From: an uncultured Prevotella sp.
GTDB lineage: Bacteria; Bacteroidota; Bacteroidia; Bacteroidales; Bacteroidaceae
Reading direction: 5' to 3'
DNA length: 11,466 nucleotides
Assembly (NCBI GenBank): GCA_934229335.1
Contig: CAKQDQ010000078.1
Location: 1 to 11,466, forward strand
In this document: in pieces, positions 1-6,196 of the stretch
How positions within the stretch are numbered: the first letter of the stretch is position 1
Layout: each line of letters opens with the position of its first letter
Notes under the pieces: generated by a model
Database searches by the model: none
Told to the model about the DNA's origin: nothing
What the model saw: the letters and a program-made list of their open reading frames with translations, nothing else
Translations under genes and position numbers: made by a program

Positions 1-946
1 GGTCTGAGAATGAATAATCTGCCATCTGATAAGTAGATTTCCATTCCTCCGCCATCTTGCCAACGAAATCTGCCACCGACATATTTGGTGCGGCGTCTAT
101 AAGCACGGGTACGCTCTTGACAAACATACCATACGATTGACATAACGATTTGTCGAAACGACCGTGACGTACAGATGTATAAGCCACTTGTTGTTTGCGA
201 CACAATCTGGACAGCACCAAACTGTAAGCCGACTGCAACAATATATTGTCTTTTATATTTACCTTTTCGCAAAAAATCTTGATGGGCGATGTCTGTAATT
301 CGTCATATAATATGATGGTATTACCCATTCGGGTGGTGTTGCTGCCTGCTAAATTGGCAAATTCTACCCCTTCGAACTTCTTGCAATAATAATCTGCTGC
401 TGCGGCATAGGCAGGTTTTTCCGTTAGTTGCTCCTCTTCTATAGCGAAATCGTAGAGAAGTTTTTGTTCAGTCTCCAGTACCTTGCCTTGATAAGCATTC
501 TCTAAATCTTGTTTAGAAAACAGTACGAAGAAGGTGGTACCATCGGCAATAATGTGGTGCATACTGTAAACCAATATCTTTCGCGTAGGAGTCTCCACCA
601 AGTCAAAGCGGCACAAAGGCTCCTCGCCCAATAATGCGTAAGGGCGAACATAAGAATCTATAAATGCGTCAGCATCTTCGTCATTCATCTGGCGTTTGCC
701 TACAGGTATCACCATGTCCTTATCTATATACTGACGAGGATTCCCATTATCATCGAGAATGATACGGGTATGAAGAATCTCACGGGTGTCAATCACCTGA
801 CGAAGTGCTTGCTCCATGCGCTCCATCTTAATGTTGGCAGATAACAATAAGCGAGCCGCAAGACTATATTGTGTAGTTTCTGGTTCTTCTTGACATTCTA
901 TGAACACGCCAAGTTGAGATTGGCATAAAGGATAAGTTTTAGTCAT
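1..946 (-). CDS. Non-ribosomal peptide synthetase, N-terminal condensation domain (partial, runs off left edge)
   Basis: My translation from the ATG at 946-944 gives 315 open codons down to base 2, so the C-terminal part of the gene is outside the window. The visible part is almost all of an NRPS condensation domain. It opens with YPLCQSQLG (residues 5-13), which resembles the family's first core motif. It carries the catalytic HHxxxDG motif as HHIIADG at residues 130-136 (bases 559-539), then a GR-containing stretch (RHGRFDK) and the late core motif YGMFVKSVPV. In this family the second His helps condense an upstream acyl or aminoacyl thioester with a downstream aminoacyl thioester. A protein that starts with a C domain either receives its donor from another protein or attaches a starter acyl group; I cannot tell which. 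Adenylation, carrier and release domains would lie past the edge. It is the third gene of an apparent operon, 60 bases after the STAS gene. No Shine-Dalgarno is visible, and the start fits the first core motif's usual distance from the N-terminus. Confidence 0.9.
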   Translation of the reverse strand, partial: MTKTYPLCQSQLGVFIECQEEPETTQYSLAARLLLSANIKMERMEQALRQVIDTREILHTRIILDDNGNPRQYIDKDMVIPVGKRQMNDEDADAFIDSYVRPYALLGEEPLCRFDLVETPTRKILVYSMHHIIADGTTFFVLFSKQDLENAYQGKVLETEQKLLYDFAIEEEQLTEKPAYAAAADYYCKKFEGVEFANLAGSNTTRMGNTIILYDELQTSPIKIFCEKVNIKDNILLQSAYSLVLSRLCRKQQVAYTSVRHGRFDKSLCQSYGMFVKSVPVLIDAAPNMSVADFVGKMAEEWKSTYQMADYSFSD

Positions 947-1006
947 AATGGCATTAGTTTGTAAGTATAAAACAACTTATGAAAGACACTTCACGATGGC
1001 GAACGT

Positions 1007-1309
1007 TTAAGAAATCCCGAACAAAGCTGAGACACCAGTCATATCAAACACTTCTTTCACGTTGTCATTGAGCTGTAACAGTTTTACTTTTCCTCCATTT
1101 CTCTGCGCTTTCTTCAGCAGAGCTATGAAGGCACGCAAGCCAGAACTGCTAATATACTCTAAGTCCTTACAATCTACTACTACGTGACCAGCATCCTCAT
1201 CAGACAACTCGTCGACCATATTTTGAAACTCTTCGGTACGAATAGTATCCATACGTCCAGCTAAACAGATATTAACTGTATCTTCAATTTTACTCGTTGT
1301 TATTTTCAT
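1007..1309 (-). CDS. STAS-domain protein, anti-sigma-factor-antagonist type (SpoIIAA/RsbV-like)
   Basis: This 100-residue protein is a single STAS domain of normal length for the SpoIIAA/RsbV family. Recognisable parts are the LAGRMDT strand-turn (16-22), VVVDCKDLEYI (43-53), the phosphorylation loop SSSGLR (54-59) and the C-terminal VFDMTGVSALFGI. By alignment with B. subtilis SpoIIAA (DSSG, phosphoserine 58), Ser55 should be the phosphoacceptor. The preceding Asp is replaced here by Ser54, a variation also met in SSAGLR-type STAS proteins. In known partner-switch systems, the unphosphorylated STAS protein binds the kinase or anti-sigma factor and frees its target, while phosphorylation blocks that binding. 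It sits 31 bases after the phosphatase/kinase gene and 60 bases before the NRPS, so its modifying enzyme is almost certainly the neighbour. Its output partner is not visible here. Confidence 0.92.
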   Translation of the reverse strand: MKITTSKIEDTVNICLAGRMDTIRTEEFQNMVDELSDEDAGHVVVDCKDLEYISSSGLRAFIALLKKAQRNGGKVKLLQLNDNVKEVFDMTGVSALFGIS

Positions 1310-1340
1310 AATTATAGTATGAGTTAAAGATATGATTTAT

Positions 1341-3677
1341 TTATTTTGTTATTTTCTTTATCATTACCAGTATGTTTTTCCCCTCTTCCCGTTTGTAAGT
1401 TACCTCATCCATCAATTTACGCATCATGAAGATACCCAATCCTCCCACAGGTCTTTCTTCTATCCCTAACGATATGTTAGCCTCTTTTACCGTGGTAGGA
1501 TTAAACGGTTTGCCACTATCAATAAGTTCGAAAAGAAGTAGGGATTTGTTATAATCAAAACTTTCCTTTAGGATTATTTCTCCCATCTTCCCTTCGGGGT
1601 ATGCATAGTAGACTACATTGACTAACGCTTCCTCCAATGCCAAATTGATCGAATTAGTCAAAGATGATGGTAACGATAAGTCTTTGCCTATTTTCTCTAC
1701 GAATGGAGGTAACTTCTCCAACTCTTCAAGGCGATTGTGCAGGACCAAAGCATTATAGTCTTTCAGTCCATAGCCAATGGTTAGAAGAGTCAAGTCATCA
1801 CTCTGTGTCGCTCCATCTACGAATCTATCCATTTCTTGCTTTAAGACAGTAAGAATTTCGTGAGCAGACTTCCCTGCATTGTCAGCCAAAACGCTTTCTA
1901 CTCTCTGTTTTCCCATTTGCTGCTTTGTTATGTTCTCTGCTTCTGTGAGGCCATCGGTGTACAGCAACAGAGACTGACGCTTCTGCAAGACCACGCTTTG
2001 CTCTTGATAATTAAAACTGCCAAATATCCCCAAAGATAAGTTCGGCACAACGGGTAACTTTTTACAACCATCAGCAACAGAGAATAAATATGGTGGGTTG
2101 TGCCCCGCATTACAATAGATAAGCTGCCCAGTTTCTAAATCCAAGCGTCCAAGAAATAGGGTGACAAACATATTAGCTTGGTTGTTCTGTGCCAATGCCT
2201 CGTTAAGTAAAGTTACAATTTCACAAGGCGAGCTGTGCCATTGCGTTATGCTACGTAACAAAGTGCATGTGATGGACATAACAAGAGATGCTGCTATTCC
2301 CTTGCCCGAAACGTCACCAATGGCAAAATAAAGCTGATTGTCTTTTATCTGAAAATCATAAAAATCTCCACCCACTTCGCGTGCAGGTTTCAGCATGGCG
2401 TCTAAGTCAATGTACTCATTGGCTTGGCGTAAGGCGTTTTCGTTTGGTATAATAGACATCTGAATGCGATGCGCTACGTTCAGTTCGCTCTCTATCCTTT
2501 CCTTGGCGCGGGTAGTATGCTCTAAATTTTTGATATAAGTACATATAGACTGTTGCATGAAGGCAAAGGCATCGTGTAGTTTGCGTAACTCGTCCTTTGT
2601 TTTCACCTCAGGCAAGGCAGCATGAAAGTCTCCTTGTGCAATTAGGTATGCTGCATCCGTCATCTGACGTATAGGCTTAGACGTTCGAACCACGATGAAA
2701 TGTACACATACAGCCAATAGTAACAAACCGATAATAAGTATTATCAGAATAGTATATGTAACAGACCCTAATTCAGACATTATAGTAGAGAAGTGACATA
2801 TGCTGCATACCGACCACCCTACATGCGGCAGAGGAGCATAACAAACCAGCACATCGGTTCCTTGCAGGTTGCCGTGTAACATGCCCTTTTTGCCTGCCAG
2901 CATATTCTTTCCTATTTCATAGTAATCGCTATCTTGCAAGATACGCCCCATAGAAAAGACTGTGTTGCGCATGATAAAACGTGTATTAGGATGCGTAATC
3001 ACCACCCCTTTCTTGCTAAGAATAAAAGAGTAACTATCTTTAAAAGGCTTTACCTTGTCTACGTCTGACGCTAAATTCTCCAAAGCCACATCTGCCACGA
3101 CCACTCCTCTCAGTCTCTTGTGGTTATCTTTTATGGCAATAGCGTAAGACACCATTCTGTCATGGCTTCCCCACTTGTCTAAATAAGGTTCGGTCCATTG
3201 TCCTTCCTGATTGTTTACTGCATCTATATACCATGGTTCTCCTTGATACCTATACTGTGTCTTGGGTAAATGCCTATGTTGCAAAATGCCATGCTTATCC
3301 TTGTAGACATATTCAAGTGGTGTAAGCGTGTCTTGCTTTTCTTCATCTTGGTAAGATATAAATCCTACACCTAATATAGATGAGTTGTTTTGTACAAGTA
3401 ACTGCATGAAATTTACCAGTTTTGAATGTTCTACGTATGGCGTATTCTGCATTTGCTTGGCAGTTAAATCCACAGCAGACTCTATGCTAACAAGTTCATC
3501 ATTCAGTTTTTGAAGCAAGTTTCCTTGTAGGGCAAAAGTATAAAGAACGGCTTGTTTCTCTTCTCGCTGTCGACAATAAGAGTAGAAGACGACCGCTATA
3601 CAGCCGAATATCACTACGGTAATAAATAGTACATATAAGTATAACCGTAGTGAGAAAGAGATATATACCTTCTTCAT
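1341..3677 (-). CDS. Membrane sensor with HAMP, SpoIIE-type PP2C phosphatase and RsbW-type ATPase/kinase domain
   Basis: This 778-residue protein has a clear domain order. TM1 is at about 12-34, an extracytoplasmic sensor at 35-305 (dCache-like, with PWYIDAVNN at 148-156 and a following W..PYLD), and TM2 at about 307-330. A HAMP region follows at about 331-383, then a helical linker at 384-410. The SpoIIE/RsbU PP2C domain spans about 425-635. Its likely metal-binding motifs are GGDFYDF (436-442), GDVSGKG (454-460), YTDGLTEAEN (573-582) and SDDLTLLTI (626-634). The C-terminal HATPase_c domain (about 645-775) has an N-box with Glu683 and Asn687, DSG (720-722) and GGLG (745-748), as in RsbW/SpoIIAB Ser/Thr kinases. 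One polypeptide therefore holds both opposing activities expected for a STAS substrate: dephosphorylation and phosphorylation. The substrate is presumably the STAS protein 31 bases downstream. The start follows a good -7 promoter box and leads straight into TM1. The kinase activity is inferred from motifs only. Confidence 0.93.
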   Translation of the reverse strand: MKKVYISFSLRLYLYVLFITVVIFGCIAVVFYSYCRQREEKQAVLYTFALQGNLLQKLNDELVSIESAVDLTAKQMQNTPYVEHSKLVNFMQLLVQNNSSILGVGFISYQDEEKQDTLTPLEYVYKDKHGILQHRHLPKTQYRYQGEPWYIDAVNNQEGQWTEPYLDKWGSHDRMVSYAIAIKDNHKRLRGVVVADVALENLASDVDKVKPFKDSYSFILSKKGVVITHPNTRFIMRNTVFSMGRILQDSDYYEIGKNMLAGKKGMLHGNLQGTDVLVCYAPLPHVGWSVCSICHFSTIMSELGSVTYTILIILIIGLLLLAVCVHFIVVRTSKPIRQMTDAAYLIAQGDFHAALPEVKTKDELRKLHDAFAFMQQSICTYIKNLEHTTRAKERIESELNVAHRIQMSIIPNENALRQANEYIDLDAMLKPAREVGGDFYDFQIKDNQLYFAIGDVSGKGIAASLVMSITCTLLRSITQWHSSPCEIVTLLNEALAQNNQANMFVTLFLGRLDLETGQLIYCNAGHNPPYLFSVADGCKKLPVVPNLSLGIFGSFNYQEQSVVLQKRQSLLLYTDGLTEAENITKQQMGKQRVESVLADNAGKSAHEILTVLKQEMDRFVDGATQSDDLTLLTIGYGLKDYNALVLHNRLEELEKLPPFVEKIGKDLSLPSSLTNSINLALEEALVNVVYYAYPEGKMGEIILKESFDYNKSLLLFELIDSGKPFNPTTVKEANISLGIEERPVGGLGIFMMRKLMDEVTYKREEGKNILVMIKKITK

Positions 3678-3696: not shown

Positions 3697-3704
3697 CAAA
3701 GGTA
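3697..3704 (-). promoter_or_regulatory. Bacteroidetes -7 promoter box upstream of the phosphatase/STAS/NRPS operon
   Basis: Read on the minus strand this is TACCTTTG, an exact match to the Bacteroidetes -7 consensus TAnnTTTG. It lies 20-27 bases before the ATG at 3677, so the mRNA would have a leader of roughly 15 bases. The DNA just upstream is very A/T rich. I see no convincing TTTG -33 box at the usual distance, so the call rests on the -7 match and its position. Confidence 0.5.
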
Positions 3705-3764: not shown

Positions 3765-3793
3765 ACTCAAACATTTTGGAAAAGTGTTTGAGT
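3765..3793 (-). terminator. Hairpin terminator after the outer-membrane barrel gene
   Basis: Two 9-base arms (3765-3773 and 3785-3793, ACTCAAACA / TGTTTGAGT) are perfect inverted repeats. Pairing continues inward through a TTTT/AAAG section to a 3-base loop, giving about 13 pairs. The hairpin starts 15 bases past the stop codon of the upstream gene and just before the promoter of the next operon. The bases after it on the minus strand are not a pure T run, so termination strength is uncertain. Confidence 0.6.
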
Positions 3794-3808: not shown

Positions 3809-6196
3809 TTACCAACAGATAGCCTTACGGTATTTCTTATTATTGTAGTTCAGACGGTATACCACGCACGCCATGGCGTATGACGGTGTAACATCTGTGC
3901 GCTGTGTGCTGACATAGTTTGCGCCGATAGTTGTCTCTATGTGCTTTAACTGACGGAGTAGATCGAAGCCCTCCAGTACAACGAGTAGACTGTTGTTGAG
4001 AAATGGGCGTACTATGCGCATATCCCATACAACGTTTGTCGTGTTGAGCTGTTCGTTGGAGTACTTGCGGCGTACGTACATAGTCAGACTGCTCGACACA
4101 CCAATTTGCCATGGCAGGTGCATTTGTCCGAGTAGTCCGTATTCCCAGTCCATAGGGTTTGTCGTCTTACCTCCGCTGTGCGATTCTGTCATGCGGAAGC
4201 GTGTGCGGAATGTTATGTACTGGTTGCCGATATTATATTTTAATCTGAAGTCGTCGTCAATGCCAACTACCTTTGCGTCTTTAACCACGGTGGTGGTTGC
4301 CGTTTCCTCCAAACTTGCTTTGTGTTCCACAGACGTTATGAGCAGATTGTGAAGACGCAGGGAGTGAGACGCATTGAGCGGTACGCCCAATGTAAGTCGC
4401 ACGGTGGTAGCGTTGTTTCCGTTAATGTTGTCGTAAGTATATAGCTTTCTGCCCGTAGGGCGGTCGAAGCACAATTTGTTGACAATAGCGTTATGCGTAA
4501 ACTGACGGTCAATCTGTACGCCGTACTCATGTAGCATATCCGCGCTGAGGTAGGTGTAGTTGAACTTCCAGTCGTAAAGCGTAGCGTTACGCAACTGTTC
4601 GTTGCCCTTGTAATACTTCTGAACGTCAGTCGTTATGGTAACGTTGGTCATCATGTCGCAGTCGGGCACGGTTGTAGTGCGCTCAAAAAGCAACGTTGCC
4701 TTGTGGCGCAGGTTGTTGCTACGCCACTGTAGGTAAGTGTTTTTAACATTGAAAGTAGTGTAACGTAATGTGCGTTTCCCCATGTAGTCCTCACGCAGAT
4801 ACTGCCTGTCGAGAATGTTGTAACTTAATGGCAGGTACGCGTTGGCACTCCACACACCGTGAAGTGTGTTTACTCCCCATCGTAGTTTCATGAGAAGCTC
4901 GTGGTAAGTACCATTTTCTCTGCGGTCGAAACTGTTGCCATAGGTGTCGCCATTCTCCTCCATCGCCTCATGTTCGTGTGAGTGTTTGTATTGATATTGT
5001 ATAGTTCCGAGCGTATGTTTCGTGAGCCATATATACCCTAACTTACCGTAATAGTCCGTATGATTGTTAGGAGTAGTGTAGAGACGTTGGCGGTAGTTGT
5101 ACACGGAGTCAATGGATGCATCGTAATAATCCACCCTGTCCACGCTGTTCTTGTCCTGTGTCTTCCCTTTGTTTGTGGCTCCAGCCTCAAACTTTATCTG
5201 CTTTCTCTTATTGTCAAACTTTATACTGGCTGTTGCTGCCAGCCCAGCAGTGTAGTCGTTAGACGTAGTAGACGTTGTACTACGACTATCATTTATCAGC
5301 GTACTATCGTTGCGAAGCAGGCTGCCGAGAGTCTCAGTCTCGTTGTCACCGCTGTTGTAAGTAAACTTAGGTTTAACGTGAATGTCCACCTTACCAGCCA
5401 TAGTGTGAAAGTCATGATAGGTGTCAATCTTTATCTTCTCATTACGTCCGTTGGCAGAAGTGTTTTGCCTAACGATGCCGTCAGTCAGGAAATCCATACG
5501 ATTAGTCTCCGTTGCCGACGTGGTAACGGTGCGGTTGAATGTGGTGTAGCCCGTGACGTCATACTTCTTCTTCTTCAACAGGTAGTCTACGCCAGCCAGT
5601 TGAGTGGTGCGTTGGTTCTTCGCGACCTCCGCTGGCGACCATTCCGTTTCCTGTCCAGGTTGTCGCGAGTCGTTAATGTCGTTGACGTTGGCGTATGCGG
5701 TGAGTCGAAGCTTCTTGTCTTTGTGCATCACGAACGCTTTGTCAGAGTAGCGGTTGTCAGGTCCTCCTGCCGCGGAGAAGTCAGCAAACCATTTGCCTGA
5801 GAATTCCTTTTTTAAGGTAACGGTCATGCGTTTGCCTTGGTCATAGTCGTAAAACTTCACAACAAGAATGGCGTAAGCCGGCAGTCGGCTGACGATAGAA
5901 GCCATAGCGTTCTTGAAGAACGTCTTGTTGTCCACCTGAATCTCCTTAACAGTCACTCCGTCAATCTCCACATTTCCGCTACTGTAATACGTAACGCCAG
6001 GCAGTTTGCGAAGCATCCTGTCGAGCATCGCCCCCTCTGGCAGTACGAAAGCATCGGTATAGAAGGCGAGAGTGTCACCTTTTACGTAGTGCGGACGCAG
6101 CTCGTCCTCCTCCTGTGCATGGAGTAGGGTAGATGACAGCATGAGTAGGGAAACAATAATCCATACTTTTCGTAAGGTGTTAGCAGTTATAAGCAT
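3809..6196 (-). CDS. Outer-membrane beta-barrel protein with N-terminal plug-like region (TonB-receptor-related)
   Basis: This 795-residue protein starts with a signal peptide: Lys10, a hydrophobic core at about 11-24, and likely cleavage after LLHA (24-27) before QEEDE. Residues about 38-130 form a plug-like segment of the Bacteroidetes type, with GDTLAFYTDAF (40-50), LPEGAMLDRML (52-62), RKLPGV (63-68), an IDGVTVKEIQVD strand pair (78-89) and a following RLPA. The rest is a long series of alternating polar/aromatic beta strands typical of an outer-membrane barrel, ending in an aromatic residue (Trp795). Related proteins usually carry a carboxypeptidase-regulatory-like domain between signal and plug; here the plug starts almost at once. 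No TonB-box-like motif or SusD partner is evident, so the transported or bound substrate is unknown. The gene has its own candidate promoter and terminator and seems monocistronic. The first ATG is supported by the well-formed signal peptide. Confidence 0.85.
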   Translation of the reverse strand: MLITANTLRKVWIIVSLLMLSSTLLHAQEEDELRPHYVKGDTLAFYTDAFVLPEGAMLDRMLRKLPGVTYYSSGNVEIDGVTVKEIQVDNKTFFKNAMASIVSRLPAYAILVVKFYDYDQGKRMTVTLKKEFSGKWFADFSAAGGPDNRYSDKAFVMHKDKKLRLTAYANVNDINDSRQPGQETEWSPAEVAKNQRTTQLAGVDYLLKKKKYDVTGYTTFNRTVTTSATETNRMDFLTDGIVRQNTSANGRNEKIKIDTYHDFHTMAGKVDIHVKPKFTYNSGDNETETLGSLLRNDSTLINDSRSTTSTTSNDYTAGLAATASIKFDNKRKQIKFEAGATNKGKTQDKNSVDRVDYYDASIDSVYNYRQRLYTTPNNHTDYYGKLGYIWLTKHTLGTIQYQYKHSHEHEAMEENGDTYGNSFDRRENGTYHELLMKLRWGVNTLHGVWSANAYLPLSYNILDRQYLREDYMGKRTLRYTTFNVKNTYLQWRSNNLRHKATLLFERTTTVPDCDMMTNVTITTDVQKYYKGNEQLRNATLYDWKFNYTYLSADMLHEYGVQIDRQFTHNAIVNKLCFDRPTGRKLYTYDNINGNNATTVRLTLGVPLNASHSLRLHNLLITSVEHKASLEETATTTVVKDAKVVGIDDDFRLKYNIGNQYITFRTRFRMTESHSGGKTTNPMDWEYGLLGQMHLPWQIGVSSSLTMYVRRKYSNEQLNTTNVVWDMRIVRPFLNNSLLVVLEGFDLLRQLKHIETTIGANYVSTQRTDVTPSYAMACVVYRLNYNNKKYRKAICW

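What the first reader, a model, noticed from the sequence alone, without database searches (positions are those of the whole stretch)
1..3677. Sensor-driven partner-switch module in an apparent operon with an NRPS
A membrane phosphatase/kinase, a STAS antagonist and an NRPS follow one another on one strand with gaps of 31 and 60 bases and a single promoter-like box in front. Partner switching normally controls sigma factors or, in some bacteria, biofilm and secretion functions; direct linkage to a peptide-synthesis gene suggests that an external signal controls production, perhaps by a direct STAS-to-enzyme contact. Seen: gene order, spacing and domains. Inferred: co-transcription and the regulatory link.
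Basis: partly seen in the sequence, partly recalled or inferred. Interest (0 to 1): 0.75.

Follow-up and report, generated by a model that had tools for sequence, protein, structure and literature searches.

The report
Phosphorylation switch beside peptide-synthetase genes
In a Prevotella-like bacterium a membrane sensor and its small switch protein sit directly in front of what looks like a peptide-making enzyme gene, and similar pairings recur in many related bacteria, which suggests that an outside signal controls production or export of a small peptide product.

Summary
In detail: minus-strand genes for a dCache-HAMP-PP2C(SpoIIE)-HATPase sensor, a STAS protein and the first 315 codons of an NRPS condensation domain, gaps 31 and 60 bases. 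The pairing is no one-strain oddity. Of 399 genomes of one family 65 had NRPS-type hits; of 52 fetched loci with two or more C domains, 40 had PP2C and/or STAS within 12 kb (39 STAS, all same-strand). In a second family 33 of 39 had STAS upstream, against 0 of 7 with one C domain. The common type is SpoIIE-STAS-outer-membrane protein-NRPS-MATE. The window's sensor lies outside the main NRPS-linked clade, so the pairing probably arose more than once. New clue: where the phosphatase lacks its kinase domain, the cluster's MATE exporter usually has one (5 of 6, or 5 of 7 with one doubtful cluster; 0 of 17 where the phosphatase has it; one fragmented genome has both). I read this as a partner switch acting locally on synthesis or export rather than a sigma-factor switch; the target is unknown. 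The NRPS runs off the window, close relatives' neighbourhoods were out of reach, and co-transcription and STAS-NRPS contact are inferred. Open-licence paper searches showed no such description in Bacteroidales.

The parts
1341..3677 (-). membrane sensor: dCache - HAMP - PP2C (SpoIIE) - HATPase_c_2, 778 aa; predicted combined STAS phosphatase and kinase
   Evidence: ORF; Pfam; catalytic-type residues invariant in the alignment
2802..3500 (-). dCache periplasmic sensor domain (aa 60-292)
   Evidence: PF02743 66.5 bits, cut-off 45
2544..2687 (-). HAMP domain (aa 331-378)
1776..2342 (-). SpoIIE-type PP2C phosphatase domain (aa 446-634)
   Evidence: motifs GDFYD, GDVSGKG, TDGLTEAE, SDDLTL seen in the translation
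1356..1736 (-). RsbW-like HATPase_c_2 kinase domain (aa 648-774); EExxxN and DxG motifs present
1007..1309 (-). STAS-only protein, 100 aa (anti-anti-sigma fold)
   Evidence: nearest solved chain by sequence SpoIIAA, E 4.8e-9
1145..1147 (-). Ser55, predicted phosphorylation site (YISSSGL)
   Evidence: same residue in 46 of 46 NRPS-linked and 59 of 59 other STAS rows aligned, some rows being repeat fetches of one place; aligned with the DSSG stretch of SpoIIAA
2..946 (-). first 315 codons of an NRPS condensation domain, cut by the window edge
   Evidence: PF00668; clade placement
539..559 (-). HHIIADG, condensation-domain HHxxxDG motif (aa 130-136)
   Evidence: read in the translation; motif meaning recalled
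3697..3704 (-). TACCTTTG, candidate Bacteroidetes -7 box (consensus recalled)
   Evidence: not above chance in the window as a whole
3765..3793 (-). hairpin between the upstream gene's stop and the sensor gene; possible end of the upstream transcript
   Evidence: seen in the sequence; RNA fold of the gap z -1.52, weak; not reported

Best explanation
The three genes are the start of one transcription unit in which a partner switch controls a nonribosomal-peptide pathway. A small molecule bound by the periplasmic dCache domain shifts, through HAMP, the balance between the PP2C phosphatase and the HATPase kinase in the same protein; this sets the phosphorylation of STAS Ser55. Unphosphorylated STAS then binds a protein of its own pathway (the NRPS or the membrane export step) and so turns synthesis or export up or down, instead of freeing a sigma factor. 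Shown: genes, domains, residues, and recurrent same-strand linkage in relatives. Inferred: co-transcription, direction of the switch, the target, the product.
For: (1) Linkage: 40 of 52 loci with two or more C domains in family 1 had PP2C and/or STAS within 12 kb, 39 had STAS, all 39 same-strand; 33 of 39 in family 2 had STAS upstream, all same-strand. Loci with one C domain: 4 of 23 and 0 of 7. Rough chance of any SpoIIE gene within 15 kb is about 5%. (2) Operon-like spacing: SpoIIE-STAS gaps n = 67, median 22 bases, some overlapping; STAS to outer-membrane gene n = 45, median about -3; STAS directly before an NRPS (within 332 bases by an approximate measure) in 18 loci, the window included. 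(3) The window's sensor sits in a 26-row clade (support 100) outside the 34-row clade that holds the main NRPS-linked type; the label NRPS+STAS needs 7 changes, at least 3 forced by well-supported branches (quick tree). (4) Complementary kinase placement: in 5 of 6 NRPS clusters whose PP2C lacks HATPase the MATE exporter carries it, in 0 of 17 with a PP2C-HATPase (Fisher p 0.0002; 0.002 with both doubtful cases counted against). (5) Among the ORF families found in five or more fetched loci, the ones identified are sensor, STAS, outer-membrane protein, NRPS, MATE and phosphopantetheinyl transferase; one more looks like an antisense artefact; no transcription factor. (6) Related modules without NRPS have transporters between SpoIIE and STAS (Na/H exchanger, CitMHS, ABC).
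Against: No target of STAS is shown. Stand-alone MATE-HATPase fusions occur away from NRPS and SpoIIE genes (L244-L247, L252), so that fusion is not specific to these clusters. Of the five MATE-HATPase cases, three are Pfam-confirmed (G290, G382, G064); G116 is a frame-split gene and G212 a full-length match to a MATE-HATPase query. My HATPase profile missed the G064 domain that Pfam finds, so its negatives are not proof. Some NRPS loci lack the switch though flanks were available (L186, L190, L194, L196, L197; L290, L306, L315). ORF families in fewer than five loci, and ORFs under 70 aa, were not annotated. The clusters are related, so Fisher values overstate independence. The window's C-domain class is mostly not switch-linked. 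The window's own NRPS is cut off and no MATE gene is in view.
Confidence: 0.5

Rival explanations
1. Conventional output: STAS releases a sigma, anti-sigma or other transcription regulator encoded elsewhere, which then transcribes the NRPS operon; the linkage only ensures co-expression.
For: Best-characterised STAS-only proteins act this way (SpoIIAA and RsbV, recalled and in passages of PMC8256260; HsbA binds FlgM and affects RpoS, abstract of PMC6482189).
Against: No sigma or anti-sigma gene was identified among the common ORF families of the clusters; every HATPase hit of my profile in the family-1 NRPS loci is fused to PP2C or MATE, none free (in family 2 one lies alone at the edge of L285). 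The profile has limited sensitivity, and distant genes of the genomes were not examined.
Confidence: 0.27
2. Export-centred version: STAS and the HATPase regulate the MATE exporter, or the MATE-kinase reports export flux back to the switch; the NRPS is controlled only indirectly.
For: MATE-HATPase fusions mainly where PP2C lacks HATPase; the MATE extension has lost the motifs in L132, where the sensor has the kinase; a STAS protein, MlaB, binds and stabilises an ABC transporter subunit (abstract of PMC7367683).
Against: Several switch-linked NRPS clusters have no MATE hit in the fetched region (for example L156, L158, L164, L168, L169), and free MATE-HATPase proteins exist elsewhere.
Confidence: 0.15
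3. In this window the neighbours are accidental: a general dCache sensor module that merely precedes an NRPS gene.
For: The sensor's clade otherwise holds only database proteins of unknown context; the nearest sensors with context (37-44% identical: L001, L263-L267) have no C domain in the fetched stretches; the C-domain class is mostly unlinked.
Against: Same strand, gaps 31 and 60, and the same arrangement recurring in other lineages.
Confidence: 0.08

Closest known systems
HsbR-HsbA (Pseudomonas aeruginosa) and SypE-SypA (Vibrio fischeri) partner switches
   Same: a regulator acting on a STAS-only protein's phosphorylation, with non-canonical outputs; SypE is called a dual serine kinase/phosphatase (abstract of PMC6482189; passages of PMC8256260)
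   Different: those are described as response regulators; here a membrane dCache-HAMP sensor, and an NRPS gene follows
Rv1364c (PP2C-kinase multidomain regulator)
   Same: best solved-structure match of the sensor profile, covering PP2C and part of the HATPase (3ke6, E 1.7e-27)
   Different: here STAS is a separate protein and the sensor is a transmembrane dCache protein (domain make-up of Rv1364c recalled)
MlaB (STAS subunit of the MlaFEDB ABC transporter)
   Same: STAS protein that works by binding a transport protein, not a sigma factor; a solved chain labelled STAS domain-containing protein (7ch8) weakly matches the window STAS (E 0.0019); that it is an MlaB is recalled
   Different: the abstract names no phosphatase/kinase pair, and there is no NRPS
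Gut dipeptide-aldehyde NRPS pathways (ruminopeptin; passage of PMC12327764)
   Same: two relatives examined encode C-A-T-C-A-T-reductase and C-A-T-reductase enzymes, an architecture expected to release aldehydes
   Different: the window's own reductase is not visible; the passages read mention no SpoIIE/STAS pair
SpoIIE-family phosphatase gene (Lun37) listed in the Streptomyces lunaemycin NRPS cluster (table passage of PMC9866976)
   Same: a SpoIIE-family phosphatase gene within an NRPS cluster, role given as unknown
   Different: an actinomycete; STAS does not occur in that text, and nothing is said of a partner switch

Membership tests
RsbU/RsbV/RsbW-type partner switch | PP2C phosphatase with its conserved acidic residues | tested here: met
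   D438, D455, D575, D627, D628 invariant in 32 aligned sequences
RsbU/RsbV/RsbW-type partner switch | HATPase serine kinase with N-box and G1 box | tested here: met
   E683/N687 and D720/G722 invariant in 32 sequences; activity not tested
RsbU/RsbV/RsbW-type partner switch | STAS protein with phospho-acceptor Ser | tested here: met
   Ser55 aligned with the SpoIIAA DSSG stretch; present in 105 of 105 aligned rows
RsbU/RsbV/RsbW-type partner switch | sigma-factor output | tested here: inconclusive
   no sigma or anti-sigma gene identified among the common cluster families; whole genome of the window not held
HsbR/SypE response regulators | receiver domain | tested here: not met
   none found by Pfam; dCache and HAMP instead
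NRPS | condensation domain with HHxxxDG | tested here: met
   HHIIADG in the translation
NRPS | adenylation and carrier domains downstream | not testable with these tools
   window ends inside the C domain; no genome held
Main Bacteroidales cluster type SpoIIE-STAS-OM-NRPS-MATE | sensor in the 34-row NRPS-linked clade | tested here: not met
   window sensor is in a separate 26-row clade
Main Bacteroidales cluster type SpoIIE-STAS-OM-NRPS-MATE | first NRPS C domain of the main C1 clade | tested here: not met
   window C domain is in a 21-row clade (support 96) with mostly single-C enzymes

The most novel reading that the evidence does not exclude
Bacteroidales repeatedly built a sigma-free, post-translational partner switch into nonribosomal-peptide pathways: a periplasmic sensor sets STAS phosphorylation, STAS gates the synthetase or exporter by direct contact, and in some lineages the kinase rides on the MATE exporter itself, so that export activity feeds back on synthesis.
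Probability: 0.25. Interest if true: 0.85.

Novelty: new variant of a known kind. Interest (0 to 1): 0.66.

Why it matters
How gut Bacteroidales decide when to make nonribosomal peptides is, as far as I know, an open question. The recurrent linkage names a compact switch, with a predicted phospho-site and sensor, that could be used to turn silent clusters on. It would also extend partner switching to biosynthesis or efflux, and the alternating position of the kinase domain (sensor or exporter) makes the output testable.

Tried and rejected
Window's own genome: none held. The 75-85% identical proteins exist but their contigs could not be fetched, so conservation of the exact window arrangement is untested. 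Chance neighbourhood: rejected for the family as a whole, not fully for this window. C-only protein as the third gene: not favoured. Promoter statistics are uninformative. The 31 of 65 figure used a truncated listing and is superseded. The strict reading that MATE-HATPase fusion belongs only to NRPS clusters is rejected. Left out of the 6 kinase-less clusters: L195, whose nearby MATE gene is a distant one on the other strand and whose genome has a MATE-HATPase on another contig (L242); with it counted against, 5 of 7, p 0.0005, and 0.002 with G078 too. One search covered only the 65 NRPS-positive genomes of the draw plus 6 others. In one search, L209 and L210 continue the NRPS of L138 and L139 and are counted as separate unlinked loci; five further unlinked loci (L176, L187, L191, L203, L204) have under 300 bases of upstream sequence. 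One-C-domain loci include cut or C-only ones, not just single-module enzymes; L140 is a main-type cluster cut by its contig end. In family 2 about 8 kb upstream and little downstream of the first C domain was examined, so switch genes lying downstream there would be missed. Literature: ten searches over open-licence PMC papers; others returned none with SpoIIE or STAS and nonribosomal terms together; the others were judged by the titles and abstract starts listed, except that the three papers holding all three of its terms were looked into by passages: two mention SpoIIE phosphatases apart from NRPS genes, one lists such a gene in a Streptomyces NRPS cluster.
Full report
What is in the window. 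On the minus strand lie a 778-aa protein (dCache, HAMP, SpoIIE-type PP2C, HATPase_c_2), a 100-aa STAS protein and the first 315 codons of a condensation-domain protein, with gaps of 31 and 60 bases. The condensation domain keeps HHIIADG. A TACCTTTG box stands 19 bases before the sensor's start codon; such boxes are no more frequent in the window than chance. An upstream gene on the same strand ends 131 bases before the sensor gene, with a weak hairpin between.

Is the order conserved? I used the window's C domain to search 399 genomes of the family of G003: 65 had a match at E <= 1e-10. From these 65 genomes I fetched 75 loci and mapped PP2C, HATPase, STAS, outer-membrane, MATE and condensation domains with profiles built here. 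Of 52 loci with two or more C domains, 40 had PP2C and/or STAS within 12 kb and 39 had STAS, all on the NRPS strand; PP2C lay on the other strand in L175 and L181. Of the other 12, six begin within 300 bases of the NRPS (L176, L187, L191, L203, L204, and L209, which continues the L138 enzyme) and L210 continues the enzyme of L139; five (L186, L190, L194, L196, L197) lack the switch although flanks were available. Of 23 loci with one C domain 4 were linked: L132; L140, a main-type cluster cut by its contig end; and L178 and L192, which have only a PP2C about 7 kb away.

A second family (that of G004, whose locus L035 is titled Muribaculaceae; taken as different because its draw shared no handle with the first draw in the listed rows) gave 45 of 297 genomes with hits, by a main-type C domain as query. 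I examined 46 loci from 43 of the 45 genomes (G004 and G006 were already known through L035 and L050, and one further partial match of G1046 was not fetched). STAS stood upstream on the same strand in 33 of 39 loci whose NRPS has two C-domain matches and in 0 of 7 with one; PP2C in 30 of 39. Two or more C domains against one: Fisher p 1.9e-6 and 3.2e-5, with the caution that related clusters are not independent.

Anatomy of the family. The common type is SpoIIE - STAS - ~440-aa protein with a weak Alginate_exp (outer-membrane) match - ~2,440-aa NRPS - MATE, sometimes with an AMP-binding-like enzyme and a phosphopantetheinyl transferase. The NRPS examined (L152) is C-A-T-C-A-T-reductase, and the second NRPS of L159 is C-A-T-reductase; reductive release suggests peptide aldehydes or their cyclised products (inference; compare the passage on ruminopeptin in PMC12327764). 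In other genomes the outer-membrane gene is absent or lies before SpoIIE, and STAS then abuts the NRPS as in the window (L168, L133, L294, L311, L320). SpoIIE-STAS gaps have a median of 22 bases (n = 67) and STAS-to-outer-membrane gaps about -3 (n = 45), as in operons.

Where the window stands. In a tree of PP2C-HATPase regions (119 rows, quick method, SH-aLRT only) one well-supported 34-row clade holds 33 NRPS-linked rows, while the window's sensor lies in another 26-row clade made otherwise of 25 database proteins of unknown context. The label NRPS+STAS needs 7 changes; starred branches force at least 3. The window's C domain belongs to a different C class, with single-C enzymes, the first C domain of the 5,774-aa NRPS of G290, and the NRPS of the SpoIIE-STAS cluster L132 (the window row is on a long branch). 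So the window looks like a separate pairing of the same two kinds of parts. I could not test this directly, because no genome with a closer sensor was reachable.

How it may work. PP2C and kinase residues and STAS Ser55 are intact. In NRPS clusters whose PP2C lacks the kinase domain, the MATE exporter carries a C-terminal HATPase-like domain in 5 of 6 (G290, G382, G064 by Pfam; G116, frame-split, and G212 by full-length alignment to such a protein), against 0 of 17 clusters with a PP2C-HATPase and a MATE gene. The exception is L137. L195 was left out for the reason given under Tried and rejected. The fused domains aligned (L138, L139, L175, L183, L189) keep the N-box Glu and Asn and the G1 DxG. 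G078 has both kinds on a small contig without NRPS; counting it and L195 against, p is 0.002. In L132 the MATE extension has lost these motifs while its sensor has an intact kinase domain. In family 2, MATE-HATPase genes stand before two large NRPSs without a PP2C or STAS in the fetched stretch (L314, L316). Against a strict reading, MATE-HATPase proteins also occur alone (L244-L247, L252). Related sensors without NRPS have transporters between SpoIIE and STAS (Na/H exchanger in L004, CitMHS in L009 and L033, an ABC protein in L003) and often an NMT1-like binding protein upstream (Pfam for L004; others by sequence start). Together this favours outputs at membrane or pathway proteins over sigma factors, but no binding partner is shown.

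Known relatives. The closest working models are HsbR-HsbA (PMC6482189, abstract), SypE-SypA (PMC8256260, passages) and MlaB as a transporter-binding STAS protein (PMC7367683, abstract). In ten paper searches no listed title or abstract start described a partner switch linked to an NRPS. One paper lists a SpoIIE-family phosphatase gene of unknown role in a Streptomyces NRPS cluster, without mention of STAS (PMC9866976, passage). PMC9248904, on Bacteroidetes biosynthetic clusters, has no occurrence of SpoIIE, STAS or anti-sigma in its main text. Subscription papers were not searchable, so novelty in print is probable, not proven.

Verdict.

Noticed in passing
window 3809-6196 (-): 795-aa protein that looks like an outer-membrane protein by eye but has no Pfam hit, same strand, 131 bases upstream of the sensor gene; could share regulation.
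   Followed up: no
L179, L183, L196: Condensation-domain-only proteins (about 435-870 aa) beside genes that look like RND efflux components by sequence.
   Followed up: no
L244-L247, L252: MATE transporters fused to an RsbW-like HATPase with no SpoIIE, STAS or NRPS hit in the fetched stretch.
   Followed up: partly
L004, L009, L011, L033, L264, L267: dCache-SpoIIE and STAS modules; L004, L009, L011, L033 and L267 have what looks like an ion or anion transporter between the two genes, and L004, L011 and L264 an NMT1/THI5-like binding protein upstream (Pfam run on proteins of L004, L009, L033 only).
   Followed up: partly
L146, L147, L148, L151: Single-C-domain NRPS genes of about 1,350 aa that share neighbouring gene families (ORF families 8, 9, 11 or 10) and have no SpoIIE or STAS hit.
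   Followed up: no
L197: Main-type cluster (outer-membrane protein, NRPS, AMP-binding-like enzyme, MATE) that lacks SpoIIE and STAS in the fetched stretch: a natural loss for comparison.
   Followed up: no
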